Source: Synergistota bacterium | GTDB lineage: Bacteria > Synergistota > GBS-1 | Length of the DNA stretch: 43,299 nucleotides | Direction: 5' to 3' | NCBI GenBank assembly: GCA_025060595.1 | Contig: JANXBX010000015.1 | Coordinates: 1 to 43,299, forward strand | Shown: positions 54-29,680 of the stretch, piece by piece | Position numbering within the stretch: the stretch's first letter is position 1 | How the letters are laid out: each line of letters opens with the position of its first letter | The notes under the pieces: generated by a model | The model's database searches: none | The model's input: only the letters and a program-made list of their open reading frames with translations | Told to the model about the DNA's origin: nothing | Translations under genes and position numbers: made by a program

Positions 54-1139
54 TTGAGCTATGTAAAGTTAAACGCATCAGGGGAAGTTTTAAGTAGACT
101 GGCTCCTCTTAAAGGGAAGGTTATAGAGGGTAAGGTTGTAGGAAAATCTGGTGATCTTCCCTTACTTGAGATTGAGGATCTTTTGTTTGCTGCTGAGAGC
201 AAGGTTCCTCTTAAGGTGGGAGCTAAAGTCTCTCTATGGGTTAAAGGTATTTTTGGAGATAAGCTTCATCTTCAGCTTCTTTCGGAAGAGGAATTGGATG
301 AGGGCTTTTTAAAGCTGGGATTAAAGGATACGCCTGAGTTTAAACTTGCTTATAGGATTTTGAAAGGTTTGGGAGTAAGCTTTGGGAGAAGGGAGGTAGA
401 GCTTTTAGGAGAGCTTATCTTGAAAAGTAAGGATTTCTCCTTCATTATCGAAGGATTAAGAGCTCTTCAAGCGAAGCTTGGGGTATCAGCCTCTCTTATT
501 AAACTTTTGCTTGTACTCGGTAGCCCGTTCTTTTTGAGAGAGATTCTATTAAAGCTTCTCTTTTATGGAGATAAGGACATAAGGAGATTTCTTGAGAGGA
601 TCATCCCCAGAGGGGAAAGCCTTTCAGCTGAGTCTATTAAGGGCTTTCTCTTAGAAAGCGGTATTCTGGAGGGCGATGAATTAATTGAGCTTCTTATTAG
701 TAAAGGTGGAGCGGATGGAGCGAAGCTTCTGGGATGGCTTCTTCTTCCGAGAGTTTTAAGCCTTCCGCCGAAAGAGGGGGATTGGTTTATATACCTTTGG
801 TTTCCAATCCTATGGGATAAAGGCGAGCTAGTTATTTCTTCTCTGAAAAAGTATAAAAGCAGAGAAGTGGATAAGAAAGAGGAAGGAGAAAGGTTTGAGC
901 TCTTCCTTGAACTTAAGAGCCTTGGGAGGATAAGAGTTTTATTTTATCTTTTGAAAGGAAAGCTTTGGTTAACTTTGGAAGCTGAGGAAGAAAGGGTCCT
1001 CGCCCTTATAAGGAGGAATCTTTCAGATTTGCTATCCTCGCTTGAAGGGCAAGGGTATGATGTGGGAGGTTTATCCTCGCGTTCGATGTTAGTTGAGAGG
1101 TCTTTTTTTGAGGGGGAGGGATTGGATATAAGAATATGA
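54..1139 (+). CDS. FliK-like hook-length control homologue (YlqG-type)
   Basis: A 361-residue protein with a TTG start 10 bases after an AAGGGAG ribosome binding site. Residues about 20-80 are beta-rich and OB-like. The middle is helical and leucine-rich. Residues about 280-345 (from RFELFLELKSLGRIRV to LEGQGYDV) have the pattern of the FliK C-terminal Flg_hook domain, which in FliK contacts the FlhB cytoplasmic tail and switches export from hook to filament substrates. The gene overlaps the following FlhB-tail gene by four bases (ATGA). Bacillus ylqG-ylqH has the same arrangement. A second, more typical FliK lies at 18248. The actual role of the YlqG family is not established; hook-length control or another partner of the FlhB-tail protein is inferred from domain and position. 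Confidence 0.7.
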   Translation: MSYVKLNASGEVLSRLAPLKGKVIEGKVVGKSGDLPLLEIEDLLFAAESKVPLKVGAKVSLWVKGIFGDKLHLQLLSEEELDEGFLKLGLKDTPEFKLAYRILKGLGVSFGRREVELLGELILKSKDFSFIIEGLRALQAKLGVSASLIKLLLVLGSPFFLREILLKLLFYGDKDIRRFLERIIPRGESLSAESIKGFLLESGILEGDELIELLISKGGADGAKLLGWLLLPRVLSLPPKEGDWFIYLWFPILWDKGELVISSLKKYKSREVDKKEEGERFELFLELKSLGRIRVLFYLLKGKLWLTLEAEEERVLALIRRNLSDLLSSLEGQGYDVGGLSSRSMLVERSFFEGEGLDIRI

Positions 1140-1393
1140 GTGAGGATTTGAAGAAGGCTGCTGCCTTGAAATATGATGAAGAGAAAGATAAAGCTCCTAA
1201 GGTGGTTGCTTCAGGAAGGGGTAAAATAGCTGAAAAAATAATTGAGATTGCTAAAGAATATGATATACCTATATATGAGGATCCTGATCTTGTTGAGCTT
1301 TTATTAAAGGTAGATATAGGGGAGGAGATACCGCCTGAGCTTTATAAGGCAGTTGCTGAGGTTTTGGCTTTTATATATAGACTAAGGGGGTAG
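1136..1393 (+). CDS. Free-standing FlhB C-terminal-domain protein (FhlP/YlqH type)
   Basis: An 85-residue soluble protein equivalent to the part of FlhB that follows the self-cleavage site. Its AAALKYDEEKDKAPKVVA matches the FlhB segment AVALRYDPEIMNAPIVVA. Its end, EIPPELYKAVAEVLAFIYRL, is nearly identical to the C-terminus of the full FlhB in this window (28553-29680). It has no membrane segments and no NPTH motif, because it begins just after where that motif would lie. Such stand-alone tails (YlqH in Bacillus) are known; at least some can partly replace the FlhB tail. The start codon overlaps the stop of the FliK-like gene, so the two are probably translationally coupled and may work as a specificity-switch pair. 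The family call is strong; the function is inferred. Confidence 0.85.
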   Translation: MSEDLKKAAALKYDEEKDKAPKVVASGRGKIAEKIIEIAKEYDIPIYEDPDLVELLLKVDIGEEIPPELYKAVAEVLAFIYRLRG

Positions 1394-1401
1394 CTTAAAG
1401 G

Positions 1402-2499
1402 GTGAGATGTCTACCGGTTACGAAACTCGAAGAAGGGATGGTTGTGGGTAAAACTATATATACTTCTGATGGAAGGCCTCTTTTAAGAAGAGGCATAGTG
1501 CTTGACAAAAAACATATAGATAGGCTTAAGAGCCTAGGTATACCTGTAATATACATTGAGGAGGAGCCTTTGAAAGGAATAGATGTAGAGGATGTTATAT
1601 TGGATAAAGTGAGGATGAACGCTGTTCAAGAGGCGCGCAGGCTAATGCTTAAGATAAGGAAGGAGCTTAAGTTTTACAATAAAAAGATTTCTGACTTGGA
1701 TCTAAGTGAGGATATAGAGGGAATTAAAGGTGTTGTAGACTCCCTTATGAGGGAGGTATTCAGGACAAAAGAGGCCCTTTATAGCTTTATAGATATAAGG
1801 GGTTTAGAGGATTTCCTTTATGGACATATGGTAAATGTCACCGTACTGGGCATGATGACAGGGTTATCTCTTGGTTATAAGCCTGATAGGCTTTTCCCGT
1901 TAGGCCTGGGGTTATTCCTTCACGATGTAGGTAAGGCCATTTTAGATGATGCCGTTTTAGCTGATCAGAAGCTGCTTGGGGATGAAAAAAATCCCCTTAT
2001 AATAAAGCATACTGTGGTGGGGTATGAGATCGTAAAGAGAATTCCGGGAGTATCTCTTCTTTCAGCTCATATTGCCTATCAACATCATGAAAGGCTAGAT
2101 GGGAAGGGATATCCAAGGGGACTTTATGGATCGGATATCCATGAGTTTGCTAAGATAGCAAGCGTTGTTAACACTTACGATATACTTGTTTCAGGATCTC
2201 CCTTCCAATCTAGGGTTAAGCCAAATGAGGCTATCGAGATAATAAGAAAAGGTGTGGGAACCCTATTTGATAGAGATGTTGTAGAAGCTTTTCTGAAGAA
2301 TGTAGCTATATATCCGGTTGGAAGCATGGTAAGACTCTCTACGGGTGAGATAGCTGTTGTTTCCCAAACTAAAAGGGGATTCCCTGATGCACCTATAGTT
2401 AGAGTGATAAAGGATTGGAGCGGTAACGACCTTGAGATACCCGTTGAGATAGACCTATCTATTCATGAGAACATAAAGGTTGAGGAGATGATAGAGTGA
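1402..2499 (+). CDS. HD-GYP domain protein, probable cyclic di-GMP phosphodiesterase
   Basis: A 365-residue cytoplasmic protein. The N-terminal ~60 residues (MRCLPVTKLEEGMVVGKTIY...) have the form of the small domain that often precedes HD-GYP. The HD-GYP domain follows with LHDVGK (H174-D175), a downstream His in IKHTVVGYEI, and HHERLDGKGYP at 228-238, which contains the GYP signature. The metal ligands and the GYP triad are present, so c-di-GMP hydrolysis to pGpG/GMP is expected. Residues after about 300 form an extra beta-rich C-terminal region. The GTG start follows AAAGGG closely. The gene sits just after the FlhB-tail gene and overlaps yraN. Two PilZ proteins downstream (33862-35120) are possible receivers of its signal. 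Confidence 0.85.
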   Translation: MRCLPVTKLEEGMVVGKTIYTSDGRPLLRRGIVLDKKHIDRLKSLGIPVIYIEEEPLKGIDVEDVILDKVRMNAVQEARRLMLKIRKELKFYNKKISDLDLSEDIEGIKGVVDSLMREVFRTKEALYSFIDIRGLEDFLYGHMVNVTVLGMMTGLSLGYKPDRLFPLGLGLFLHDVGKAILDDAVLADQKLLGDEKNPLIIKHTVVGYEIVKRIPGVSLLSAHIAYQHHERLDGKGYPRGLYGSDIHEFAKIASVVNTYDILVSGSPFQSRVKPNEAIEIIRKGVGTLFDRDVVEAFLKNVAIYPVGSMVRLSTGEIAVVSQTKRGFPDAPIVRVIKDWSGNDLEIPVEIDLSIHENIKVEEMIE

Positions 2500-2840
2500 A
2501 AGAGAAAGGTAAAAGGGCTGAAGAAGAAGCGATAGCTTACCTTAAGAGAAAGGGGTACAGCATTCTTGAGAGAAATTACTTTACCCGCTTTGGCGAGATA
2601 GATGTAGTTGCTAAAAAAGACGGTTTTATAGTTTTCATCGAGGTTAAAAGTAGTGAGGCTTGGGATGCGGAATATAATATTACTCTCCATAAGGCTAAAA
2701 AGCTTTATAAGGCTGCTATGGTTTACCTCTCAAGGAAAGGTTTTGTTGATCTTCCATTTAGGTTCGATCTCATTGCTATAAACGGTGGTAATCTCAATCA
2801 CTATGAGAATATCTTAGGGGAGGGCGGAGTCTTTGGTTAG
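2496..2840 (+). CDS. yraN: UPF0102/YraN-family nuclease-like protein
   Basis: A 114-residue protein with the family pattern: N-terminal GKRAEEEAIAYLKRKGY, then FGEIDVVAKKDGFIVFIEVK. The E-x-D ... E-x-K arrangement is the PD-(D/E)xK nuclease core. The biochemical role of most family members is uncertain; a DNA-processing role is often proposed because the gene lies near rnhB, comM and dprA, as here. The GTG start overlaps the HD-GYP stop, with GAGGAG eight bases upstream. The 3' end overlaps comM by eight bases. Confidence 0.85.
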   Translation: MKEKGKRAEEEAIAYLKRKGYSILERNYFTRFGEIDVVAKKDGFIVFIEVKSSEAWDAEYNITLHKAKKLYKAAMVYLSRKGFVDLPFRFDLIAINGGNLNHYENILGEGGVFG

Positions 2841-4362
2841 CTTCTGCTGGACCGTGGCCTTTAACGGTCTTGAAGCTATACCGGTCAAAGTTGAGGTAGA
2901 TGTTTCTAGAGGCTTGCCATCCTTTAATCTTGTAGGTTTGCCAGACACCGTCGTTAGAGAGTCGAAAGAACGAGTTAGGTCAGCCTTGAAAAACAGCGGT
3001 TTCTCCTTTCCGTCAAGCAGAGTTGTAGTTAATCTTGTTCCTGCTGATTTGAAGAAGGAAGGCAGTCATTTCGATCTTCCTATAGCCTTAGCTCTTCTTT
3101 CAGCCTTAGGTGAGTTACCCGAGCTTTCTGATTGGCTTGTTTTCGGGGAGCTCTCACTGAATGGGGAGCTTGAAAAGACAAGAGGAGCAATTTTAGCCGC
3201 CTCTTTAGCCAAGGAGAAGAACTTAAAGCTTCTTTTTCCCTTTAAAAACGCTTTTGAGGTCTCTCCAATAGCTTCTGGGCTTTCAGCTTATGGCGTTGAA
3301 AATCTATCGCAGGCCTTTGCATTTCTTAAGGGGGAGATGCTTCTTAAGGAGCTTGAGCCTACCGATTTCAAATCTTTACCAGTTGATTCTGAGTTTGATA
3401 TATCTGATGTTAAAGGACAGGTCTTCGCTAAAAGGGCTTTAGAGATAGCTGCCTCAGGCTGGCATAGCCTGATAATGATCGGGCCACCTGGTAGCGGAAA
3501 AACTATGCTTGCTAAGATATTGGTTTCTCTTCTTCCTCCAATGGTTGACGAAGAAATAGTAGAGGTTTCTAAGATATATAGTATAGCGGGATATCTTAAT
3601 AATGGTTTGATAGTGAGGAGGCCGTTTAGAGCCCCTCATCATACGATAAGTGAAGTAGGCCTATGTGGTGGAGGCGGAAGCCCACATCCAGGAGAGATAT
3701 CCTTAGCTCATAGAGGGGTTCTTTTTTTAGACGAGCTTCCTGAGTTTTCAAGAAGATCCTTGGAGGTTTTAAGACAACCTCTTGAAGAAGGAAAGGTTAG
3801 CTTATCTAGGGCAGGATATTCCTTATCCTTTCCGGCTTGCTTTCTTATGGTTGGTGCTATGAACCCATGTCCATGTGGTTTTTTAGGTGACACGGAAAGG
3901 GAATGTAAGTGTTCCTCTCTGGCGATTAAGAAATATTTCTCAAAGCTTTCTGGTCCCTTGATAGATAGGATAGATTTACATGTGGAGGTCCCAAGGCTAA
4001 AGCCAGATGAGCTTGTATTTGCTGGTTCCGATGAATCTGAGACAAATGAGAAGTTAAGAGGAAAGGTTGCTTTTGCTTGGGAAGCTCAGAGGGAAAGGTT
4101 TTCTTCTCCCTTGAGATTTAACTCCATGATGACCCCTGATGAGTTGAAAAGGTTTTGCCCCTTAGGTAAAGAGGAAAAAGCCTTTTTAAGGAAAGCTCTA
4201 AGCGATCTTGGTCTAACTGCAAGGGCTTACAATAAGGTTTTAAAGGTAGCAAGGACAATAGCTGACTTAAGCGGAAGCCCCGATATAAAGGTGGAGCATC
4301 TTGCTGAGGCTTTAACTTTTAGGCTATTAGATAGAAGGGAGACACCTTGGACGATCGATTAG
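2833..4362 (+). CDS. comM: ComM / YifB-family AAA+ ATPase (Mg-chelatase-like)
   Basis: A 509-residue protein. The N-terminal domain begins FNGLEAIPVKVEVDVSRGLP and continues GLPDTVVRESKERVRSALKNSG, as in ComM/YifB. The ATPase core has Walker A GPPGSGKT (217-224) and Walker B VLFLDE (296-301). A cysteine cluster follows in NPCPCGFLGD...CKC, and the C-terminal Mg-chelatase-like domain ends in FRLLDRR. ComM of naturally transformable bacteria is a helicase that promotes branch migration during integration of transforming DNA. The TTG start lies inside the yraN 3' end, and dprA, another transformation/recombination gene, overlaps its stop. The family assignment is secure; natural competence cannot be concluded from this window. 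Confidence 0.92.
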   Translation: MVSFCWTVAFNGLEAIPVKVEVDVSRGLPSFNLVGLPDTVVRESKERVRSALKNSGFSFPSSRVVVNLVPADLKKEGSHFDLPIALALLSALGELPELSDWLVFGELSLNGELEKTRGAILAASLAKEKNLKLLFPFKNAFEVSPIASGLSAYGVENLSQAFAFLKGEMLLKELEPTDFKSLPVDSEFDISDVKGQVFAKRALEIAASGWHSLIMIGPPGSGKTMLAKILVSLLPPMVDEEIVEVSKIYSIAGYLNNGLIVRRPFRAPHHTISEVGLCGGGGSPHPGEISLAHRGVLFLDELPEFSRRSLEVLRQPLEEGKVSLSRAGYSLSFPACFLMVGAMNPCPCGFLGDTERECKCSSLAIKKYFSKLSGPLIDRIDLHVEVPRLKPDELVFAGSDESETNEKLRGKVAFAWEAQRERFSSPLRFNSMMTPDELKRFCPLGKEEKAFLRKALSDLGLTARAYNKVLKVARTIADLSGSPDIKVEHLAEALTFRLLDRRETPWTID

Positions 4363-5423
4363 CTCTTTTAGGACTTAATTTGGTTGAAGGATTAGGACCA
4401 GTTAAAATCAGCTCTCTTATAGCCTTTTTTGGTTCACCTTTGGATGCCTGGAACGCTTCTTTAAAGGAAGTGCTTCAAGTTCCTGGAATAGGGGAGAAGA
4501 TAGCTCAAGCTCTTTTAAAAGTTAAGAAGGAGAAGCTTCTTGAGAGGGAGCTTGAGCTAATGGATAAGTGGGGCATAAGCTTTTTAACCCTTTTAGACGA
4601 GGGATATCCTGTTCTCCTTAAGGAGATAGAGAATCATCCTCCTGTTTTGTACATTAAGGGTAGCTTAAAAAATGACGTATTGACGCTTGCTGTGGTCGGA
4701 ACGAGAAAGCCTTCTCCTTACGGCAGGAAAGTTGCAAGGGAGTTTAGTAAGTTTCTTGCCTCTTCTGGAGTCTGTATAATCAGCGGTCTCGCTCGAGGGA
4801 TAGACTCTGAGGCTCATAAGGGAGCTTTAGAGGGAGGAGGTACAACTTATGCAGTTTTAGGCTCTGGTATCCTTAATCTATATCCGCCTGAGCTTAAGGG
4901 ATTGGCTGAAGAGATAGCTTCTAGGGGTGCGCTATTAAGTGAATATCCTCTTTTTACTCCTCCTCTTTCTGGAAACTTCCCTCGCAGGAATAGAATTATA
5001 AGCGGGATTTCAAAAGGGGTGTTGGTTGTTGAGGCTCCCTTAAAGAGCGGAGCGATGATAACTGTCTCTTACGCTTTAGATCAGGGTAGAGATGTATTTG
5101 CCGTTCCAGGTAGTATATACTCATCTAAGAGTGAAGGGCCTAATCTGCTCATTCAGCAAGGGGCTAAGCCTGCTTTAAAGCCTGAGGATATTCTGGAAGA
5201 ATACGGAGTAAAGATGAGCTTTGCTAAAAGAGATGGTAATATTTTAGATATTTCTGAGGAAGAGAGGAGAATTCTCGATAAATTGCCTGTTGGAGAGGTT
5301 TTCCCCATCGATAATTTATTTTATGATGATGCTAATTGCGGAAAATTTGCTATAATAACTATGCTTGAGTTAAAAGGATATTTAAAGAGAGTTGAAGGAA
5401 ACAAGGTTATTAGAGTTAAGTGA
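4347..5423 (+). CDS. dprA: DNA-processing protein DprA
   Basis: A 358-residue protein. Residues ~8-65 are a helix-hairpin-helix region (LVEGLGPVKISSLIAFFGS, VPGIGEKIAQALL). A Rossmann-like core contains GTRKPSPYGRKVA and SGLARGIDSEAHKGAL, the DprA signatures. A winged-helix C-terminus runs from SEEERRILDKL to the end. DprA binds single-stranded DNA and loads RecA during transformation. The TTG start follows AAGGGAG by five bases and overlaps comM by 16 bases. The stop overlaps the region just ahead of the Smg-like gene. Confidence 0.95.
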   Translation: MDDRLALLGLNLVEGLGPVKISSLIAFFGSPLDAWNASLKEVLQVPGIGEKIAQALLKVKKEKLLERELELMDKWGISFLTLLDEGYPVLLKEIENHPPVLYIKGSLKNDVLTLAVVGTRKPSPYGRKVAREFSKFLASSGVCIISGLARGIDSEAHKGALEGGGTTYAVLGSGILNLYPPELKGLAEEIASRGALLSEYPLFTPPLSGNFPRRNRIISGISKGVLVVEAPLKSGAMITVSYALDQGRDVFAVPGSIYSSKSEGPNLLIQQGAKPALKPEDILEEYGVKMSFAKRDGNILDISEEERRILDKLPVGEVFPIDNLFYDDANCGKFAIITMLELKGYLKRVEGNKVIRVK

Positions 5424-5431
5424 GGAGTTTA

Positions 5432-5731
5432 ATGGATTCTCTTAGGAGGGAGATAGATATGGAGGAAAAATTTATAAGAGTGCTTCATGCGAGAGAGAGG
5501 TTAAGGCTCACTCCTGCTGCCGAGGGGATAATATATAAGGCAGTTCAGCTAGGGTTGTTGGATGAAAAAGATAGAGAGGCGCTCTTGGAGCAGATAATGT
5601 TTCTTACACCTGGCAAGTTTGAGGAGATAGATATAGAGGAATTGAGATATATAATGGAGAACTTTATAGAAGATGAGGATATGCTTACCATTCTTTTTGA
5701 GGAGGAGGGGCAAAAGAAAACCTTAAATTGA
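5432..5731 (+). CDS. Smg/DUF494-family small protein
   Basis: A small acidic protein whose C-terminal half (LLDEKDREALLEQIMFLTPGKF, then IDIEELRYIMENFI) matches the C-terminal region of Smg/DUF494 proteins, which are encoded next to dprA in many genomes. The biochemical role is unknown. I chose the ATG at 5432, four bases after GAGGAG. A stronger AGGAGGGAG lies seven bases before a downstream ATG at 5459, which would give 90 residues. An upstream GTG at 5420 overlaps the dprA stop. The gene stands where topA is often found between dprA and trmFO. Family call moderate, start uncertain. Confidence 0.6.
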   Translation: MDSLRREIDMEEKFIRVLHARERLRLTPAAEGIIYKAVQLGLLDEKDREALLEQIMFLTPGKFEEIDIEELRYIMENFIEDEDMLTILFEEEGQKKTLN

Positions 5732-7023
5732 GAAAGGTTTGTGTTATCGGTGGCGGACTCGCCGGTAGTGAAGCTGCCTGGCAGCTTGCTAAAAGAGGAA
5801 TTAAGGTTACCTTATTCGAGATGAGACCCCACCTTATGACTCCAGCTCATCAAACGGGATATTTCGCTGAGCTTGTTTGCAGTAACTCCCTTGGTGCCGA
5901 AGGGCTTGATACTGCCTCCGGGCTATTGAAGGAGGAGCTTAGGTTACTCGGTTCGGTAATACTTGAGTGTGCATATGCTTCTAGGGTTCCAGCGGGCAAA
6001 GCCTTAGCTGTAGACAGGGAGAGGTTTTCCAAACTTGTAACCGAAAGGATAAGCTCAAACTCTCTGATAGAAGTGGTACGAGAGGAGGTTAAAGAGGTTC
6101 CGGATGACGGTGAAGTGATAGTTGCCACTGGTCCGCTGACCTCTCCTTCCCTATCTGAGAAGCTAAGAGAGCTTTTAGGTTCGGAATATCTTTACTTTTA
6201 CGATGCTGTTTCTCCTATAGTTACTTATGAATCTCTTAATATGGAGAGGATCTTTAAGGGGTCTAGATATGGAGTGGGAGAAGACTATCTTAACTGTCCT
6301 ATGACCAAGGAAGAATACGAGGCTTTCTGGGAGGCTTTGGTTAACGCGGAGAGGCATCCTCTTCATTCTTTCGAGGATCCTAAGTATTTCGAAGGGTGTT
6401 TGCCTATAGAGGTTATAGCCTCTAGAGGGAAGGAAACCCTTCTTTACGGTCCGCTTAAGCCCGTTGGTTTGATAGATCCGAAAAGCGGTAAGGAGCCGTA
6501 TGCTGTGGTTCAGCTCAGAAGGGAGAATATAGAGGGAACGCTTTATAATCTTGTGGGCTTTCAGACGAACCTTAAGTGGAGTGAGCAAAGAAGGGTTTTT
6601 AGAATGATCCCGGGCCTTGAAAATGCCGAGTTTGTCAGATATGGTGTCATGCATAGGAATATTTTCATAAACTCTCCGGTCCTTCTTGACCGTTCTTTAA
6701 GGCTCAAGAAAGATAGAAGAGTTCTTTTTGCTGGACAGATAGTCGGAGTTGAAGGGTATATGGAGTCTACGGCTATGGGGTTAGTCGCTGCCTTAAGTAT
6801 CATTTCCGATGGGAATATTGAGTTTCCTGAAGAAACTATGATAGGTTCTCTTTTACGATACATAACTACAGCTGATCCTTGTAACTTTCAGCCCATGAAC
6901 GCTAACTTTGGGATACTTCCTTCGCTTGAATTTAAGGAGCGCGACAAAGTGAAGAGGAAAATAAAACTTTCTGATAGGGCTATAAATACCTTGACAAATT
7001 GGTGGAAATGCTTAAAATATTAG
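5728..7023 (+). CDS. trmFO: tRNA uracil-54 methyltransferase TrmFO (folate/FAD-dependent)
   Basis: A 431-residue flavoprotein that makes 5-methyluridine at position 54 in the tRNA T-loop, using methylenetetrahydrofolate and FADH2. The N-terminal dinucleotide-binding motif is VIGGGLAGSEAAWQLA. The family segment ELVCSNSLGAEGLDTASGLLKEEL carries Cys51. A second conserved cysteine, Cys224, lies in FEGCLPIEV; the equivalent pair is implicated in catalysis in Bacillus TrmFO. Length is typical. The TTG start overlaps the stop of the preceding gene (TTGA), which suggests coupled translation. The 3' end carries a promoter-like sequence that may drive xerC. Confidence 0.95.
   Translation: MRKVCVIGGGLAGSEAAWQLAKRGIKVTLFEMRPHLMTPAHQTGYFAELVCSNSLGAEGLDTASGLLKEELRLLGSVILECAYASRVPAGKALAVDRERFSKLVTERISSNSLIEVVREEVKEVPDDGEVIVATGPLTSPSLSEKLRELLGSEYLYFYDAVSPIVTYESLNMERIFKGSRYGVGEDYLNCPMTKEEYEAFWEALVNAERHPLHSFEDPKYFEGCLPIEVIASRGKETLLYGPLKPVGLIDPKSGKEPYAVVQLRRENIEGTLYNLVGFQTNLKWSEQRRVFRMIPGLENAEFVRYGVMHRNIFINSPVLLDRSLRLKKDRRVLFAGQIVGVEGYMESTAMGLVAALSIISDGNIEFPEETMIGSLLRYITTADPCNFQPMNANFGILPSLEFKERDKVKRKIKLSDRAINTLTNWWKCLKY
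6991..7018 (+). promoter_or_regulatory. Candidate sigma-A promoter ahead of xerC-hslVU-codY
   Basis: TTGACA at 6991-6996, a 16-base spacer, then TAAAAT at 7013-7018. The -35 is perfect and the -10 matches five of six consensus positions. It lies inside the end of trmFO. A start point seven bases after the -10 would fall near 7025, only about five bases before the xerC ATG at 7030, where no Shine-Dalgarno sequence is visible. An effectively leaderless xerC message is therefore possible. This is sequence resemblance only. Confidence 0.45.
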
Positions 7024-7029
7024 CTTAAA

Positions 7030-7875
7030 ATGGGGTTTGAAACAATTTTAGATGAATTTTTACGTGAGCTTGCCTTATTTAAAGGATTTTCGGAACATAC
7101 TCTCAAGGCTTATTCTTCTGATATATGTGAATTTTTATCTTTTTTGGAAGATAGGTCCTTGGAGCTTAATAGATATACTCTTTGGGAATATCGGGATTAC
7201 CTTTCCTCTCAAGGATATGAGAGAAGCAGTATAGCTCGAAAGCTTTCTTCGCTCAGATCCTTTTTAAGGTTTTTGAGGGAAAAAGGTTTTCTTAAGGAAT
7301 CGCTTGAAAGGGTTCTTAAAAATCCGAGGATGAATAGATCTCTTCCGAAGGCTCTCTCAGTGGAAGAGGTGGAAAAGTTGATATCTTCGGCTTTAGACTC
7401 AAGAGAAAGAGCTATAGTTGAGTTTATCTATGCTACTGGCGTGAGGGTGGGAGAGCTCGTTTCCCTGAATTGGAGCGATATAGATTGGATTAATGAGATA
7501 GTGAGAGTTGTAGGAAAGGGAGGTAAAGAAAGAATAGTCCCTATAGGTTCGAAAGCTCTTGAGGCTCTTAAGGCCTACGGTAAGGAAAGCGGGATGAGTG
7601 GGCCTTTGTTTAAAAACAAAAATGGCGATAGGCTTACAGCAAGAAGCGTTGAGAGGATAATAAGGGCTATGGCTCTTCGGGCGGGCTTAAAGGGGCATGT
7701 TACTCCTCACGTTTTAAGGCACTCTTTTGCTACTCATCTTCTTGAAGGAGGAGCTGATCTTAGGATGGTTCAAGAGATGTTAGGTCATTCGAGCCTTGCC
7801 ACAACGCAAATTTATACTAAGGTTACCTTAGAGAGAGTGAAGGAGGTGTATGAGCTTGCCCATCCGAGGAGTTAA
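7030..7875 (+). CDS. xerC: Tyrosine recombinase XerC
   Basis: A 281-residue tyrosine recombinase. The N-terminal SAM-like DNA-binding domain (residues ~5-90) contains [16 protein letters not shown]. The catalytic domain carries Arg139 ([12 protein letters not shown]), Lys163 in VGKGGKER, His227-x-x-Arg230 ([13 protein letters not shown]), His253 (LGH) and nucleophile Tyr262 (QIYTKV). XerC acts at dif sites to resolve chromosome dimers. Synteny with hslVU and codY matches the Bacillus codV-codW-codX-codY operon, where codV is this recombinase. A mobile-element integrase is unlikely given this housekeeping context. No ribosome binding site is seen before the ATG. Confidence 0.93.
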
Positions 7876-8395
7876 GTCTACCACGATCATTGCTTTAAGA
7901 CATAAGGGAGAGTCTGTAATGGGTGGGGATGGTCAGGTTACGATGGGAGAGATGATCTTAAAGGAAAGCGCTAAGAAGGTGAGACGCCTCTATGGAGGAA
8001 GGGTTCTTGCCGGTTTTGCAGGAGCCACAGCCGATGCCATGACTCTCCTTGAGAGGTTTGAGGGAAGGCTTGAGGAAAGTCAAGGTAATCTTTTGAAAGC
8101 TGCTGTTGAGATGGCTAAAGATTGGAGAACCGACAAGATCTTAAGAAGGCTTGAGGCTCTCTTGATAGTTATGGATAAGGAAAGAATACTTCTTATATCT
8201 GGTACGGGGGATATAGTTGAGCCTGATGACAATGTAATAGCTGTAGGTTCAGGTGGGGGTTATGCTCTTGCAGCGGCTAAGGCTTTAATTGCTCGCACTG
8301 ATCTTTCGGCGGAAGAAATAGTTAGGGAATCTCTTAAGATAGCATCGGCCTTATGTATATATACAAATAGTAACTTTATAATAGAAAAGCTTTAA
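7856..8395 (+). CDS. hslV: HslV / ClpQ peptidase subunit of the HslUV protease
   Basis: An N-terminal-nucleophile peptidase of about 179 residues, the proteolytic chamber of HslUV. The conserved start of the mature enzyme, [23 protein letters not shown], is clear. The TTG at 7856 is preferred because AGGAGG (7841-7846) lies nine bases upstream; the ATG at 7850 is only three bases from it. With the TTG start the likely catalytic threonine is residue 9, so an eight-residue leader would have to be removed. The gene overlaps the 3' end of xerC by about 20 bases and is followed at once by hslU. Confidence 0.93.
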
Positions 8396-8409
8396 GAGAG
8401 GTGATCTAT

Positions 8410-9762
8410 TTGTCTTTAGATAGCCTAACGCCTCGACAGATAGTTGAGGCCCTTAATAAATATATAATTGGTCAGGAGGAAGCCAAGAGGGCTGTAGCTA
8501 TAGCCTTAAGAAACAGGATGAGAAGGAAATCCCTTCCACCGGAGCTTAGGGAGGAAGTGGCTCCTAAGAATATCCTTATGATAGGGCCTACTGGGGTTGG
8601 TAAAACAGAGATAGCTCGTAGACTTGCTAATCTTGTGGGTGCTCCATTTGTTAAGGTAGAGGCTACTAAGTTCACAGAGGTTGGATATGTGGGTAGAGAT
8701 GTGGACTCTATAATAAGAGAGCTTGTTGAGGTTTCCGTTCAAATGGTTAAGTCGGAAAAGATGACTGAGGTTATGGAAGAGGCTCAGACTCATGCTGAGT
8801 TAAGAATTGTTGAGGCTTTGATGCCTGGGATGCGGTATTCTTACGCTGCTCAAGAGCCTGGAACCTATGAGCCTTCTGTTAGAGAAAGCACTCGCCAAAG
8901 GCTTCTTGAGATGCTCAGGAACGGTCAGCTTGAGGATAGAGTTATAGAGATAGATGTTGTTGATAGATCTTTGCCTAGGGTTGAGGTTTTCACCGCGATG
9001 GGAATAGAGGATCTTGGAATCAACTTTCAGGATCTTTTAGGGAACATATTTCCACCGAGGATGAAGAGGAGAAAACTGAAAGTTAAAGAGGCAAGGAAGG
9101 TTCTAGAGCAAGAGGAGGCTCAGAAGCTCATAGATATGGATGAGGTGGCTCAAGAGGCTATAAGGCGAGCTGAGGAGATGGGAATAGTCTTCATAGATGA
9201 GATAGACAAGATAGTAAGCAAGGGAAGCACCTATGGTCCTGATGTCTCAAGGGAAGGAGTCCAGAGGGATCTTTTACCTATAGTTGAAGGTTCTACGGTC
9301 ATAACAAAATACGGCCCTGTGAAAACGGATCACATTTTGTTTATCGCTGCTGGAGCGTTTCACACGGCTAAACCGTCGGATCTCATACCTGAGCTTCAGG
9401 GAAGGTTTCCCATAAGGGTCGAGCTTAAACCCCTTTATAGAGAAGATCTTGAAAGGATATTGGTGGAACCCAAGAACGCTCTTGTAAAGCAGTATAAGGC
9501 TCTTTTAGCTACAGAAGGAGTAGAGCTCGAGTTTACCCCAGAGGCTATAAGTAAGATAGCTGAGATAGCCTATAGAGTTAATGAGGAGATGGAAAATATA
9601 GGGGCGCGAAGACTTCACACGGTTATGGAAAGGCTCTTAGAGGACATATCTTTCGAGGCTCCTGAAAGAAGGGGCACGAAGGTTGTCATAGATGAGAAGT
9701 ATGTAGTTAATAAGCTCTCCTCTATAGTGGGGAGGAAAGATCTTAGTCAATACATCCTTTAA
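8410..9762 (+). CDS. hslU: HslU / ClpY ATPase subunit of the HslUV protease
   Basis: A 450-residue AAA+ unfoldase that feeds substrates into HslV. It starts [36 protein letters not shown], the classic HslU N-terminus. Walker A is GPTGVGKT (59-66). Walker [12 protein letters not shown], follows the intermediate domain (roughly 100-240). The C-terminal tail ends LSQYIL, the segment that inserts between HslV subunits to activate it. I chose the TTG at 8410, spaced five bases after GAGAGGTGA; a GTG at 8401 overlaps that ribosome binding site. Length is normal for the family. Confidence 0.95.
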
Positions 9763-9776
9763 GGAGGGTGAAAAAT

Positions 9777-10577
9777 ATGGCCAAAAGTCAGGATTTAGGG
9801 GTCTTAGAGGAACTGTTACGGAAGGAGCGCAAAATAAGCAGGTTAGTCGAGCGTCAGGCAGGACGCGAGGTAGATTTTAAAGCTATAGCTGGAGTCTTAA
9901 GCGAGGTGATAGAAGCAAACGTATACATTTCTGATAAGGATGGAAAGATTCTTGGGTATGCTCTTTTAAACAACTATGATTGTCCAGAAGTTTGGAAGGT
10001 TTTGAAGGAAGGGATGTATCCAGAAGAATATAATGAAAAGCTTTTAAGGATAGTTGAACCTATGGTAAATCAGACTCCTAGAAGTGGACGTTGTTCTTAC
10101 TTCTTTGATGTCGACTGTAAATATCCTAACAAGTTCGTTAGCTTCTTCCCTATAGTTGGTGGTAGTGAAAGGCTTGGGACGCTTGTTATCGCTCGCTTTG
10201 ATAATGGTTTGTCTTTGGCAGATCAGATATTGGCGGAATATGGAGCTACCATAGTGGGTATAGAGATCCTTAGAGCAAGAAATGAGGAAATGGAAAAGAT
10301 GGCTAGGGAGCAGATAACCGTTCAGCTTGCTTTAAGAACCCTCTCCTATTCTGAGCTCTCCGCAATGAGGAGGATATTTGAGAAGTTCAATAATAGTGAA
10401 GGTGTTGTAATAGCAAGCAAGATAGCCGGAGATATAGGTGTTACTCGTTCCGTGATAGTTAACGCTTTGAGGAAGCTCGAGAGCGCTGGTATAATAGAGA
10501 CAAGATCGCTTGGTATGAAAGGAACATATATAAGGGTTATTACGCCTCTCTTTTTGAAAGAACTTAAGGTAAAGTAG
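9777..10577 (+). CDS. codY: GTP- and branched-chain-amino-acid-sensing repressor CodY
   Basis: A 266-residue regulator. The N-terminal GAF domain (residues ~25-155) should bind isoleucine/valine. A linker leads to a C-terminal winged helix-turn-helix with the hallmark ASKIAGDIGVTRSVIVNALRKLESAGIIE and RSLGMKGTYIRV. In Bacillota, CodY represses nutrient-stress genes, including motility genes in some species, when amino acids and GTP are plentiful. The ATG at 9777 is chosen because AAGGAGG (9761-9767) is nine bases upstream; the GTG at 9768 touches the ribosome binding site. I did not find a clear CodY box (AATTTTCWGAAAATT) in the gaps. The gene sits directly before flgB, as in Bacillus. Confidence 0.95.
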   Translation: MAKSQDLGVLEELLRKERKISRLVERQAGREVDFKAIAGVLSEVIEANVYISDKDGKILGYALLNNYDCPEVWKVLKEGMYPEEYNEKLLRIVEPMVNQTPRSGRCSYFFDVDCKYPNKFVSFFPIVGGSERLGTLVIARFDNGLSLADQILAEYGATIVGIEILRARNEEMEKMAREQITVQLALRTLSYSELSAMRRIFEKFNNSEGVVIASKIAGDIGVTRSVIVNALRKLESAGIIETRSLGMKGTYIRVITPLFLKELKVK

Positions 10578-17643: not shown

Positions 17644-18251
17644 GACGCTTTGTGTTTCTCTTTTTCATCCTTCTTTTTGCTTTAATGGGAACCTTAATAG
17701 GGCTTCACTTTGCGAGGGTTGTTGATGTTAAAAGGCTTTATTTAAGTAGCGTTTACCCTTATGCTAAGAAAATACCTTATGTGGGTCAATATGTGGAGAG
17801 GATTACTTCGGATTTAAGGGTGCGCTTTACTCCTCTTGAAAGAAGGAGAATGGAACTGGAGCTTTGGGCCAGGAGATTAAAAGAGCTTGAGGAAAGATTA
17901 AAGCGGGAGCTTTCTCGAAAGGAGGCTGAGCTTGAAGCTGAAAAGAAGAAATTAGAGGAGGAGAGAGCTAAGCTTGAGGAGGAAAGGAAGAGAGTAGCTG
18001 AGCTTACAGCGAGGCTATCTCGAGAGCTTTCGGCTAAAGAGCTATCTGAGGAGGATATTAAAAGGTTGGCCTCCTACTATGCTGTGATGAGGCCGGCTGA
18101 AGCGGCAGCCATAATAAACAGCCTTGATGAGGACCTTGCAGTGATAATATTGAAAAATCTTGATCAGGAGAGGGCAGCAAGAATTTTAGCTTCCTTAGAT
18201 CCCAACAAAGCGGCTAGGCTTATGTCCAAAATGGGGAGGGAAAAAAGGTGA
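17640..18251 (+). CDS. YlxF/MotE-like membrane coiled-coil protein
   Basis: A 203-residue protein with an N-terminal membrane anchor (FVFLFFILLFALMGTLIGLHF, ~4-24), a long charged coiled coil (~70-140) and a C-terminal MgtE_N/FliG-like repeat (YYAVMRPAEAAAIINSLDEDLAVIILKNLDQERAARILASLDPNKAARLMSKMG). This layout is that of YlxF in Bacillus, found between fliJ and fliK, and of MotE in Campylobacterota, which assists stator assembly. The exact function here is inferred from that family. It starts four bases before the SLT gene ends and overlaps fliK. Confidence 0.8.
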   Translation: MRRFVFLFFILLFALMGTLIGLHFARVVDVKRLYLSSVYPYAKKIPYVGQYVERITSDLRVRFTPLERRRMELELWARRLKELEERLKRELSRKEAELEAEKKKLEEERAKLEEERKRVAELTARLSRELSAKELSEEDIKRLASYYAVMRPAEAAAIINSLDEDLAVIILKNLDQERAARILASLDPNKAARLMSKMGREKR

Positions 18252-19798
18252 AGAATGGAGTTTCTCTCTTTAAGCTTCTTCTAAGGATGGGAGAAAGCTC
18301 TAGGACCAGGGATGGCTGCCGTAAAGAGATAAGGGATAGTAACTTTAAGAGGGAAAGTTTCCTTAAGGAGCTGGAAAGGGCTAAGCTCAAGAGCCCTATC
18401 GAGGGTGAGATCGCCTTAAGTAGCTCGGAGTGCATCGAACTTTTAATGCAAGCTGATGGGTTAAAATTTAAGCCCTTGAAGGTTAATGGACCTTTAAACG
18501 AGCTTCAGATTATCGATTCGGAGAGAAAGCAAGCATCAGAATTTGATGTTATAAATGATACTAAAGTTTCCGAAAGAAGTATAAGACTTGAAGATGCGAA
18601 GCTTAGCCTTTTATTTAAAGGTAAGTTTGAGCTCCCTAAAACATATGAAGATTTAATGACAGCTCCTGAAAGTGAAAGCGAGCACTATGTAAATGGGGAA
18701 AACGGAAAGCAAGAGCTGAAAGAGGAGAACTTAGGCATCGAGCTCCTCTTTAAGAACAAGCCTGAGCTTAAGCTCTTTGAAGAAAGCCGGGAAAGGCAAA
18801 ATTTTAGTAATGAAACGGTAAAGGTTGGCCGTTTCTTAGAAAAAGAAATTAATACTTCTAAGGAAGCTCTTTTCTTAAAAGAGAAAGAGGTTTTCGAAAA
18901 CGAAAATTTCCTTTTCTCGAAAGGTGAGGAACTCGTTAAGGGATTGAAAAATACCAAACCCTCTCCTGATCTAAAGCAACAGGTAAAGCTTCAGGAAGGC
19001 AGCTATGACCCTTCTCTTAATAAAAATGATTTAAGGGAGAGACCCAGGGTTGCTGTAAATTATGCTTCTAGTACCTTTGAAATTGAGAAAAAGGAATCTC
19101 CCTTAAGTGTTGAAGACGGTAAGAACGCATCTAGAATTAAGGAGGTTTCCATGGCGAAGCTTGAGGAAGCGCATTTTAGCTTTAGGGATGGCTTTTCCAA
19201 AGAAGGGTCTGAGCTAAAGGTAATAAAAGGTGAAAACTCGAGCTTTTCATCTGATGGCTTCGAGAAAAGTGACGTAAAGGTTTTAGGTAGCTTCCATACT
19301 GATCTGAGTGGAAATGGTCATGAGGGTTTTAGCGGTGAGCTTTTTGAGGGAGACTTGGCTTCTGAGAGGGAGAATCCCTTAAGCCTTAAGGGCGAGCTCG
19401 AGAGCACCTTTACCGATTTTCTAAAGAAGTTTGAGGTTAATCTTAAAGAGGGAAAGAAAGAGGCTCTTATTGAGCTTCATCCTCCTGAGCTGGGTAAAGT
19501 TAGGTTTAGCGTGGAGGTTCAGGATGATAGGATAAGCGCTCGCTTTTGGCTTCCATCGCCTGAAATTAAAACTCTTTTTGAGAGTAACGTTCAACAGCTT
19601 CAGGCACTCTTTAGGGAGCAGGGGTATACCTTTGAGGTGTTTTTCTTCTCTGGGGAATCGGGAAGTGAGGGTAAGGGGAAAAAGAGGGAAGTCAGTCAAT
19701 CTCATGGGACCCTTTTGGGAATAGAGGAGGATAAGGAAGAACTGGGCTTTTCTTCTCAGGTCCTTGCCAGGGAAGGCCTTCTTAACATTTTGGCTTAA
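18248..19798 (+). CDS. fliK: Flagellar hook-length control protein FliK
   Basis: A 516-residue protein. The first ~370 residues are low-complexity and rich in Ser, Glu, Lys and Phe, as expected for the extended ruler part of FliK. The C-terminal Flg_hook domain (~385-475) includes EALIELHPPELGKVRFSVEVQDDRISARFWLPSPEIKTLFESNVQQLQALFREQGY, the segment that contacts the FlhB tail to switch export specificity. The GTG start lies inside the preceding gene and flgD follows. A second FliK-like protein is encoded at 54-1139. Confidence 0.9.
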   Translation: MKNGVSLFKLLLRMGESSRTRDGCRKEIRDSNFKRESFLKELERAKLKSPIEGEIALSSSECIELLMQADGLKFKPLKVNGPLNELQIIDSERKQASEFDVINDTKVSERSIRLEDAKLSLLFKGKFELPKTYEDLMTAPESESEHYVNGENGKQELKEENLGIELLFKNKPELKLFEESRERQNFSNETVKVGRFLEKEINTSKEALFLKEKEVFENENFLFSKGEELVKGLKNTKPSPDLKQQVKLQEGSYDPSLNKNDLRERPRVAVNYASSTFEIEKKESPLSVEDGKNASRIKEVSMAKLEEAHFSFRDGFSKEGSELKVIKGENSSFSSDGFEKSDVKVLGSFHTDLSGNGHEGFSGELFEGDLASERENPLSLKGELESTFTDFLKKFEVNLKEGKKEALIELHPPELGKVRFSVEVQDDRISARFWLPSPEIKTLFESNVQQLQALFREQGYTFEVFFFSGESGSEGKGKKREVSQSHGTLLGIEEDKEELGFSSQVLAREGLLNILA

Positions 19799-27822: not shown

Positions 27823-28599
27823 ATGTTTATTGATAATCTTTTAAAAAGCTTTGATGCTTTTCTCCTTATCTTACTTAGGATAACAACATTTTTGATCTTT
27901 GCTCCCGTTTTTAATAGCAGGATATTTCCTATGATGGCGAGATTGGGATTAGCTTTTTTCCTTGCTTTGATTTACTTTTATTCGGTTGGGCTTTCTTTAA
28001 ATTTTCCATCTGTTTCTGCATGGGACTTTGTTTTTTATGCTTTAAGGGAGTTTTTAATCGGTCTTGTTATGGGCTTTTACGTTTCTCTTATATTTTCTGC
28101 CTTTCAGCTTGCTGGGACCATATACGGATATCAGATGGGCTTCGGCATTATCTCTATATTAGATCCTGAGGCTATGGAAAGCGTTAGCTTGACCGGTCAG
28201 CTTAAATATTTGTTAGCCATTCTCCTGTTTTTTGCCACCGATTGCCATCATGGTCTGCTTTTAGCTTTATTTAACAGCTTTAGGCTAATTCCCATAGGAG
28301 CGATGAGTTTTAAAGGAGCGCTGGTTAAGGAGCTCTTTTCTGTGTTAAGCGGGAGCTTTTTGATAGCTCTTCAGATAGCTTTACCTATTATGGCTATACT
28401 TCTAATAATAGATATAGGTTTAGGAATTATAGGTAGAACCATTCCTCAGCTTAATGTCTTTATAATAGGCTTTCCACTGAAGATAGCCATTGCCTTTTTA
28501 ACTTTAATGTTTATATTGCCAGGGTTGAAAGTGGTGATGGAGGGAATATTAAGTGGGCTTTCCCAGGGAGTTGAAAAGGTGCTATTTTATCTCAGGTAG
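27823..28599 (+). CDS. fliR: Flagellar export gate protein FliR
   Basis: A 258-residue polytopic protein with about six hydrophobic segments, the single-copy gate subunit in the FliP5-Q4-R1 complex. Family features include RITTFLIFAPVFNSRIFPMMARLGLAFFLAL, GFGIISILDPE and the C-terminal GRTIPQLNVFIIGFPLKIAIAFLTL. The 3' end carries GGAGGG (28539-28544), the ribosome binding site of flhB, which starts 47 bases before fliR ends. Confidence 0.95.
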   Translation: MFIDNLLKSFDAFLLILLRITTFLIFAPVFNSRIFPMMARLGLAFFLALIYFYSVGLSLNFPSVSAWDFVFYALREFLIGLVMGFYVSLIFSAFQLAGTIYGYQMGFGIISILDPEAMESVSLTGQLKYLLAILLFFATDCHHGLLLALFNSFRLIPIGAMSFKGALVKELFSVLSGSFLIALQIALPIMAILLIIDIGLGIIGRTIPQLNVFIIGFPLKIAIAFLTLMFILPGLKVVMEGILSGLSQGVEKVLFYLR

Positions 28600-29680
28600 A
28601 TTTGATCTCCAACTGTTCGCAGAGGAAAAGACCGAACCTGCTACTCCTCGAAGGAGAAGAAGAGTAAGAGAGGAAGGGCAGGTTGCTCGGAGTGCAGAGC
28701 TTAATGCTTTTGTCATAATAAGCGTTGGTCTGCTATCTCTTCTTTTGTTTGAGGAGCTCTTAAGGGAGGACATTTTTTCTATGACGCGTTATATATTCTC
28801 GAACCTTCACTTGACTAGGTTGAGCGGTATTAACTTAGATAATGCAATTAGGGGTCAATCTGAGATACTTAGGTTTTTCTTGAAGATAATCTCTCCCTTT
28901 TTCCTTTTTTCTTTGGTTGGGGCGATAGCTGTTAATATATTTCAGGTTGGGTTTCACCTAACCTTTAAGCCTCTTGCCTTTAACTTGAATAGGTTAAATC
29001 CCGTTGTGGGATTAGGTAGGATCTTCTCCTTGAGGTCTTTAGTGGAGCTGATTAAGGGGAGCGTAAAGGCTATTTTGGTTGGATATTTGCTTTATAGATT
29101 TATAAAAGCTGATTACCCAGCTTATTTAGACTCCTTACTTGTTCCGTTTCCTAACAATCTTATAATGATTAGCAAGCTTATATTTTTCACATTGCTTAAG
29201 GTGTTGCCTCTTCTTTTAATATTAGCAATAATAGATTATACTTATCAGAAGTGGGAGTTTGAAAGAAGCATTCGCATGAGTAAATACGAGATAAAAGAGG
29301 AGTATAAGCAGGTTGAAGGAGATCCGAGAGTAAGGGCTAAGATAAGGGAAAAACAGAGAGAGCTTGCGAGAAGAAGAATGATGCAAGAGGTTCCAAAGGC
29401 TCAGGTAGTTATAACAAACCCTGTTATGGTTGCCGTAGCCCTACGTTATGATCCAGAAATAATGAATGCTCCGATAGTTGTGGCTAAGGGGGAAAGGCTC
29501 ATAGCTGAAAGGATAAAGAGGATAGCTGAAGAGCATGGTATTCCCATCGTTGAGGATAAGGCTTTGGCCTGGACCCTCTATAAGACTGTTGATGTGGGAG
29601 ATGAAATTCCTCCAGAGCTATACAAGGCTGTTGCTGAAGTTCTTGCCTTTGTTTACAGGTTGGGGAAGGAGGTTGCTTAA
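28553..29680 (+). CDS. flhB: Flagellar export specificity switch FlhB with variant NPVM cleavage motif
   Basis: A 375-residue export-gate protein that, with FliK, switches export from hook to filament substrates. The N-terminus has DLQLFAEEKTEPATPRRRRRVREEGQVARS. Four membrane segments lie within ~50-255, followed by the cytoplasmic domain (YEIKEEYKQVEGDPRVRAKIRE). At the self-cleavage site the sequence is VVITNPVMVAVALRYD: Asn289-Pro290 are kept, but Thr-His-Tyr of NPTHY is Val291-Met292-Val293. The GTG at 28553 is eight bases after GGAGGG and gives about ten extra N-terminal residues compared with Bacillus FlhB. A separate homologue of its tail is encoded at 1136-1393. Confidence 0.95.
   Translation: MGFPRELKRCYFISGRFDLQLFAEEKTEPATPRRRRRVREEGQVARSAELNAFVIISVGLLSLLLFEELLREDIFSMTRYIFSNLHLTRLSGINLDNAIRGQSEILRFFLKIISPFFLFSLVGAIAVNIFQVGFHLTFKPLAFNLNRLNPVVGLGRIFSLRSLVELIKGSVKAILVGYLLYRFIKADYPAYLDSLLVPFPNNLIMISKLIFFTLLKVLPLLLILAIIDYTYQKWEFERSIRMSKYEIKEEYKQVEGDPRVRAKIREKQRELARRRMMQEVPKAQVVITNPVMVAVALRYDPEIMNAPIVVAKGERLIAERIKRIAEEHGIPIVEDKALAWTLYKTVDVGDEIPPELYKAVAEVLAFVYRLGKEVA

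What the first reader, a model, noticed from the sequence alone, without database searches (positions are those of the whole stretch)
29411..29437. FlhB lacks the NPTH self-cleavage motif: NPVM instead
Asn289-Pro290 are kept, but Thr-His-Tyr is replaced by Val291-Met292-Val293 in an otherwise well-conserved stretch (VVITN-PVMV-AVALRYD). In studied FlhB proteins, cleavage between Asn and Pro of NPTH is needed for normal substrate switching, and the residues after Pro influence it. Either cleavage still occurs with NPV, or this lineage switches export without it. The separate FlhB tail at 1136-1393 could supply the free C-terminal piece.
Basis: partly seen in the sequence, partly recalled or inferred. 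Interest (0 to 1): 0.7.

Follow-up and report, generated by a model that had tools for sequence, protein, structure and literature searches.

The report
FlhB cleavage loop drifted to NPVM
The flagellar export switch protein FlhB of this bacterium keeps the Asn-Pro pair at its self-cutting site but has Val-Met where most such proteins have Thr-His, a change found in every relative seen from its bacterial family, so the protein is predicted still to cut itself and the change is likely a tolerated variant rather than the loss of the switch.

Summary
The window's only full FlhB (28553-29680 +) reads NPVM at 29417-29428. It is not a sequencing slip: the six protein clusters at 75% identity or more (the window's own included) and all four own-family genomes seen read NPVM, with near-saturated silent sites. 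'Lacks the self-cleavage motif' overstates it: the Asn-Pro that is cut is kept, here and in 191 of 191 FlhB read from five phylum-level groups. Only the two following positions changed, and both vary naturally. His is missing in 26 of 47 Synergistota FlhB but in 7 of 144 from the other four groups. Published single Ala changes at these positions barely slow cleavage (HrcU T266A, H267A), and EscU T264A and H265A crystals hold the cut fragment. So NPVM is likely still cut, perhaps more slowly. The free FlhB tail (1136-1393) is real but belongs to a known, widespread family (TIGR00789) next to a second FliK-like gene. It occurs in 125 of 158 genomes whose FlhB keeps His and in 30 of 33 whose FlhB does not; no significant link. 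New variant of a known kind; modest interest.

The parts
28553..29680 (+). flhB, the only full-length FlhB of the genome
   Evidence: PF01312 402.6 bits; TIGR00328 381.9 bits, cut-off 349.25; single full-length copy in G000
29417..29428 (+). NPVM (AAC CCT GTT ATG) in place of NPTH; the Asn-Pro pair is 29417-29422
   Evidence: alignment column; in the model Asn ends strand 1 (51-55) and Pro-Val-Met (56-58) lead to strand 2 (59-64)
29420..29677 (+). FlhB C-terminal cytoplasmic piece (FlhB_CC) that cleavage would release, Pro290 to Ala375
   Evidence: query residue 290 aligns with residue 1 of the cleaved chains 3b1s_B and 3bzx_B; pN 0.07-0.10 between G000 and the other three family genomes
1136..1393 (+). 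free-standing FlhB tail (TIGR00789 flhB_rel; FlhX/YlqH type, names recalled or from PMC9321776), 85 aa
   Evidence: TIGR00789 124.9 bits, cut-off 117.35
54..1139 (+). second FliK-like protein (Flg_hook domain) directly before the tail gene, 4-base overlap
   Evidence: PF02120 36.8 bits; one of two PF02120 loci in the genome; in 10 of 10 relatives looked at an ORF of over 150 aa ends within 160 bases of the tail, its end FliK-like by eye only
18248..19798 (+). main FliK, hook-length/switch protein
   Evidence: PF02120 60.6 bits; the other of two PF02120 loci

Best explanation
This is a flagellar FlhB whose cleavage loop reads NPVM, changed at the two positions after the Asn-Pro pair, likely by tolerated drift, and it is predicted still to cut itself between Asn289 and Pro290. 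Shown here: Asn-Pro is present in every FlhB read; the change is fixed in the family genomes seen, in a gene under purifying selection; the His position is variable across Synergistota; the free tail does not significantly track the change. Inferred: the side chain of Asn attacks its own carbonyl, as in other FlhB/SctU proteins, with Val-Met merely carrying the turn. Cleavage may be slower than with NPTH. After cleavage the exposed Pro-Val-Met end, instead of Pro-Thr-His, would be what FliK meets, so the FliK contact is likely adjusted in this lineage. The tail (1136-1393) with its FliK-like neighbour is likely an independent accessory pair that binds the same site on FlhB or its partner.
For: Asn-Pro kept in 191 of 191 FlhB read from five groups and in 120 of 120 listed homologues. 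The Thr position differs in 35 of 144 FlhB outside this phylum (V, I, D, E, Q, S), and two solved FlhB, 8z5s and 6s3l, read NPEH. The His position varies within Synergistota: T, R, M, F or H, His missing in 26 of 47, at least 12 residue changes on a quickly built tree, including a His inside an Arg clade at 93% identity (G043 against G057). Published: Xanthomonas HrcU T266A and H267A only slightly affect cleavage while N264A abolishes it (PMC3040844, passages). PDB: EscU T264A (3bzv) and H265A (3bzx) carry a separate 83-residue chain that starts at the Pro, as native EscU (3bzl) does, whereas N262A (3bzp) is one 137-residue chain (lengths, titles). FlhB_CC is strongly conserved in the NPVM family (pS 0.66-0.78, pN 0.07-0.10). 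The model of the cytoplasmic domain is the FlhB fold with the motif in the expected loop.
Against: No NPVM protein has been assayed. The published mutants are single Ala changes in injectisome proteins; a double Val-Met change could be worse than either. HrcU T266A and H267A do leave more uncut protein. The modelling program cannot tell whether a bond is cut. The own tail resembles its own FlhB_CC more in the NPVM family (57-61%) than in most of the other 40 genomes compared, three of which reach 57-61%; this would also fit a closer working relation. All 4 His-less FlhB of the Bacillota group came from the 20 lowest-scoring of the 50 read, so His loss may also mark divergent or weakened FlhB.
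Confidence: 0.76

Rival explanations
1. NPVM FlhB is cut poorly or not at all, and the free tail supplies the separable C-terminal piece in trans.
For: A tail gene is present. In Xanthomonas the separate piece HrcU265-357 works in trans (PMC3040844, passages). Tail clusters of the family are 81-93% identical to the window's, FlhB clusters 75-83%, though the two lists are not matched genome by genome. The tail alone does not model as a fold (mean pLDDT 51, no strands), as expected if it needs the FlhB strand.
Against: The tail is nearly as common beside a FlhB with His (125 of 158) as beside one without (30 of 33), and no association is significant. It lacks the Tyr of the LAxxLY helix of FlhB_CC and has a one-residue gap there; none of the 32 tails aligned shows that Tyr (by eye), though the tail of G164, fetched for another purpose, does. 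An uncut FlhB would keep its own C-terminal piece in the binding site. The tail model lacks a control (FlhB_CC alone was not modelled).
Confidence: 0.08
2. FlhB of this lineage switches substrates without any cleavage; the motif has decayed because cleavage is dispensable.
For: His and Thr are both gone and the His position is loose across the phylum.
Against: If cleavage were dispensable, Asn and Pro should drift too; they are present in 47 of 47 Synergistota FlhB and 191 of 191 overall.
Confidence: 0.05
3. The Val-Met end is an adapted docking surface: after cleavage it meets a FliK (main or second) that has co-evolved, so the change is functional and not neutral.
For: The residues after the cut become exposed (PMC2615192, passages), and a model that PMC3542141 cites has that end touching FliK (passages). 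NPVM is kept in the family while silent sites are near saturation, and both FliK-like genes are in the same cluster.
Against: No co-variation between FliK and the motif was tested here; close relatives swap Arg and His at this place, which looks tolerant rather than tuned.
Confidence: 0.1
4. Sequencing or assembly error in the window.
For: None.
Against: Six clusters and four genomes agree, with different silent codons.
Confidence: 0.01

Closest known systems
FlhB / SctU export switch family (PF01312, TIGR00328)
   Same: Full length, fold, position beside fliR, Asn-Pro bond in the loop between the first two strands of the cytoplasmic domain
   Different: Val-Met instead of Thr-His after Asn-Pro; the usual preceding Asp (ADVV) is Gln (AQVV) in this family
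FlhB of other Synergistota (NPTT, NPTR, NPTM, NPTF, NPVF)
   Same: Asn-Pro kept and His lost; nearest on the tree is G005 with NPVF, weakly placed (support 52)
   Different: All but NPVF keep Thr; NPVM itself was seen only in the own family
Free FlhB-like protein FlhX / YlqH (TIGR00789 flhB_rel)
   Same: The window's 1136-1393 gene is a member above the cut-off and sits beside a FliK-like gene; PMC9321776 mentions flhX-fliK together in Nitratiruptor (passages)
   Different: Nothing unusual seen; it is not specific to NPVM genomes
EscU T264A and H265A, HrcU T266A and H267A laboratory mutants
   Same: Changed at the same two positions; crystallised as separate chains (EscU) or reported cut (HrcU)
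   Different: Single Ala changes in injectisome proteins, not a natural double change in a flagellar protein

Membership tests
FlhB (TIGR00328 / PF01312) | Whole-protein profile score above the curated cut-off | tested here: met
   TIGR00328 381.9 bits against 349.25; PF01312 402.6 against 24.4
FlhB (TIGR00328 / PF01312) | Flagellar gene neighbourhood | tested here: met
   fliR directly before; domains of FliF, FliK, hook protein, CheA, CheB, PilZ, FapA and a sigma-70 factor in the window
FlhB (TIGR00328 / PF01312) | Asn-Pro bond in the loop after strand 1 of the cytoplasmic domain | tested here: met
FlhB (TIGR00328 / PF01312) | Full NPTH tetrapeptide | tested here: not met
   NPVM; but 67 of 191 FlhB read differ from NPTH at Thr, His or both (124 NPTH), so the full tetrapeptide does not define the family
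FlhB (TIGR00328 / PF01312) | Self-cleavage between Asn and Pro | not testable with these tools
   needs protein
FlhX/YlqH free tail (TIGR00789) | Profile score above cut-off, short, starting after the cut position, no Asn-Pro | tested here: met
   124.9 bits against 117.35; 85 aa, no Asn-Pro

The most novel reading that the evidence does not exclude
Synergistota are a lineage in which FlhB self-cleavage has been retuned: the NPVM FlhB is cut slowly or only at high temperature, and an exchangeable, separately made C-terminal piece (the tail, made with its own FliK-like partner) takes over the site, so the switch runs by exchange of pieces rather than by cutting.
Probability: 0.07. Interest if true: 0.75.

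Novelty: new variant of a known kind. Interest (0 to 1): 0.33.

Why it matters
The motif is written NPTH and has been called strictly conserved (abstract of PMC2615192). In the FlhB read here only Asn-Pro is invariant, and in one phylum more than half have no His. That gives natural variants, including NPTH and NPTR FlhB that are 93% identical, to test what Thr and His do: speed of cutting, or the surface offered to FliK after cutting. It also speaks against a tempting link between the free tail and motif loss.

Tried and rejected
Tail as partner of motif loss: compared over 191 genomes with Fisher's test (p 0.14) and with independent pairs on a tree (8 supported pairs, too few differing in the tail to reach significance); no support, but no strong exclusion by the pair test either.

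Sampling limits: motifs were read in all 47 Synergistota FlhB (61 genomes searched, 48 with a match) and all 45 of the Desulfobacterota group (79 searched, 46 with a match, one of them tail only), but in only 35 of 51 Thermotogota genomes with a match (30 best scoring and the 5 lowest full-length), 50 of 104 in the Bacillota group (30 best and the 20 lowest with the motif present) and 14 of 16 Atribacterota (two fragments lack the motif). Proteobacteria, Campylobacterota and other phyla were not sampled. Groups are named after the named locus used as centre (titles; placement recalled), not by the tool. 'No tail' rests on match counts in genomes of unknown or draft quality, so some absences may be gaps.

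FliK-tail fusions: tails in long open frames (G025, G152, G158, G144, G164) looked like possible fusions; the upstream parts are low-complexity, GC-rich frames without FliK-like ends by eye, so the idea was dropped.

Recent copying between tail and FlhB: the two are 61% identical as proteins but their DNA alignment shows many differences along its length; no sign of a recent copy.

A first motif extraction by regular expression failed (not used) and was replaced by an HMM alignment; the regex counts are superseded.

Literature: among the papers listed (25 of 46; 1; 0; 15 of 29; 1; 15 of 100, mostly the word 'synergistic'; 0; 2) none was seen to treat FlhB of Synergistota or a natural NPVM; listings were seen as titles and starts of abstracts. 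The library holds open-licence papers only. Work on FlhB T271/H272 and on FlhX in Helicobacter is recalled and was not looked up by identifier. Passages of PMC7064499 and PMC1084347 were seen and not used.

Full report
What is there. The window (bases 1-43299 of contig C15 of a 1.86 Mb, 34-contig, 99% complete genome) is largely a flagellar and chemotaxis cluster. FlhB is encoded at 28553-29680 (+), overlapping the end of fliR. Codons AAC CCT GTT ATG at 29417-29428 give Asn-Pro-Val-Met where the family usually has Asn-Pro-Thr-His. The protein passes the curated cut-offs for FlhB, and there is no second full FlhB in the genome.

Where it belongs. The nearest named relative in the genome collection is the MAG 'bacterium GBS-1' (75% identity); other high hits are labelled Synergistetes or Synergistaceae, and the phylum is called Synergistota here on that basis. 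The four own-family genomes returned (G000-G003) read NPVM, as do the six best protein clusters (75-100% identity, one of them the window's own), while none of the other 114 of 120 listed homologues does. Between G000 and the other three, pS is 0.74-0.80 and pN 0.11-0.16 for the whole protein, and pS 0.66-0.78 and pN 0.07-0.10 for the part after Asn. The change is old, fixed as far as seen, and in a gene under purifying selection.

How unusual is it. I read the motif in 191 FlhB from five phylum-level groups (sampling limits in Tried and rejected). Asn-Pro was present in 191 of 191. NPVM occurred in 4, all in the own family. Thr was replaced in 41 of 191 (V, I, D, E, Q, S). His was replaced in 33 of 191: 26 of 47 in Synergistota (T 11, R 7, M 6 with the four NPVM, F 2), 3 of 45 in the Desulfobacterota group, 4 of 50 in the Bacillota group (all four among the 20 lowest-scoring), 0 of 35 in Thermotogota, 0 of 14 in Atribacterota. 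Of 80 named loci found by similarity, 78 keep His and the two that do not are GBS-1 (NPVM) and a Synergistaceae bacterium (NPTR). On a quickly built tree of the 47 Synergistota plus 9 outgroup rows, with the motif masked and 20 of 52 inner branches weak, the presence of His changes at least 5 times and the residue at least 12 times among Synergistota; one His (G043) lies inside an Arg clade. So the position is loose in this phylum, and NPVM is one state of it, with the neighbouring Thr position changed as well.

Will it still be cut. The bond and the attacking residue are kept. In Xanthomonas HrcU, changing Thr or His to Ala only slightly affects cleavage, changing Asn abolishes it and changing Pro nearly does (PMC3040844, passages). 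In the PDB, EscU T264A (3bzv) and H265A (3bzx) hold a separate 83-residue chain beginning at the Pro, as native EscU (3bzl) does, while N262A (3bzp) is a single 137-residue chain; P263A is 137 residues, with an 83-residue chain also present in 3c03 (lengths, titles). EscU P263A is partly cut in cells (PMC3189125, passages). FlhB of the hyperthermophile Aquifex was seen uncut in Salmonella cells at 37 degrees but fully cut when purified (PMC3708937, passages), a reminder that assays of a FlhB from a hot source need the right temperature; that this window's source is hot is only suggested by the relatives' name (recalled). The modelled cytoplasmic domain (mean pLDDT 84.9, block means mostly 93-96 from residue 41 to 130) has strand 1 at 51-55, ending on the Asn, and strand 2 at 59-64, with Pro-Val-Met between, and matches solved FlhB and SctU domains. 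None of this proves cutting by NPVM; it makes it the best bet.

What Thr and His may do instead. In Spa40 the residues after the cut swing out and become exposed (PMC2615192, passages), and a model has that end touching FliK (cited in PMC3542141, passages; the same passage reports that FliK binds cut and uncut FlhB alike). A 2026 study of Salmonella proposes that FliK ejects the cut C-terminal piece to flip the switch (PMC13344023, abstract and section 14). Loss of Thr-His would then alter what FliK meets more than whether the bond is cut. This is inference.

The free tail. 1136-1393 encodes 85 residues matching FlhB from just after the cut and is a member of TIGR00789. It overlaps by 4 bases a FliK-like gene (54-1139, PF02120), one of two PF02120 loci in the genome. 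In 10 of 10 relatives inspected an ORF of over 150 aa ends close before the tail; its end looks FliK-like by eye and was not scanned. flhX-fliK are named together for Nitratiruptor (PMC9321776, passages). The tail is present in 45 of 47 Synergistota with FlhB, 34 of 35 Thermotogota read, 32 of 45 in the Desulfobacterota group, 43 of 50 in the Bacillota group and 1 of 14 Atribacterota. Among FlhB without His 30 of 33 have it, among those with His 125 of 158 (Fisher p 0.14, not corrected for kinship); independent pairs show no trend but have little power. The two Synergistota genomes with FlhB and no tail read NPTH, and three His-less FlhB elsewhere have no tail found. The tail lacks the Tyr of the LAxxLY helix that FlhB keeps (also absent by eye from the 32 tails, though present in the tail of G164), a residue whose change suppresses loss of FliK or YscP (PMC2615192, passages). 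In trans function of such a piece is known for HrcU265-357, so a role at the same site is possible, but not as a replacement specific to NPVM. Alone it does not model as a fold, consistent with needing a strand from FlhB or another partner; there is no control. In the NPVM family the tail is 57-61% identical to its own FlhB_CC, among the highest values of the 44 genomes compared (three of the other 40 reach 57-61%); I have no explanation that I would defend.

Verdict. A real, lineage-fixed variant at two non-attacking positions of the FlhB cleavage loop, best read as tolerated drift within a phylum that has loosened the His position. The broader point, frequent absence of His in Synergistota with Asn-Pro always present, was not seen in the papers listed by my searches, which cover open-licence papers only and were seen as capped listings.

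Noticed in passing
window 54-10577: The second FliK-like gene and the free FlhB tail form an overlapping pair, followed by HD, UPF0102, ComM-type, DprA, TrmFO-type, recombinase, HslV-type, HslU-type and CodY genes: the gene string known from Bacillota around ylqG-ylqH (recalled).
   Followed up: partly
L010 (G043) against L025 (G057) and L013 (G029): FlhB with NPTH nested in a clade of NPTR; pairwise identities 90-93%, codon CAC against CGC or CGG: an apparent natural reversal.
   Followed up: partly
L310-L322 and L181: Thirteen of 14 Atribacterota FlhB read have no free tail in the genome, and 9 of 14 read NPVH or NPIH.
   Followed up: no
window 1136-1393: Tail clusters nearest the window's are 81-93% identical to it against 75-83% for FlhB clusters (lists not matched by genome), and the tail is 61% identical to its own FlhB_CC with a shared IPPELYKAVAEVLAF stretch.
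   Followed up: partly
L174 (G015:C14): A Synergistota genome with only a shortened tail match (76-aa frame) and no FlhB found, perhaps a remnant of a lost flagellar system.
   Followed up: no
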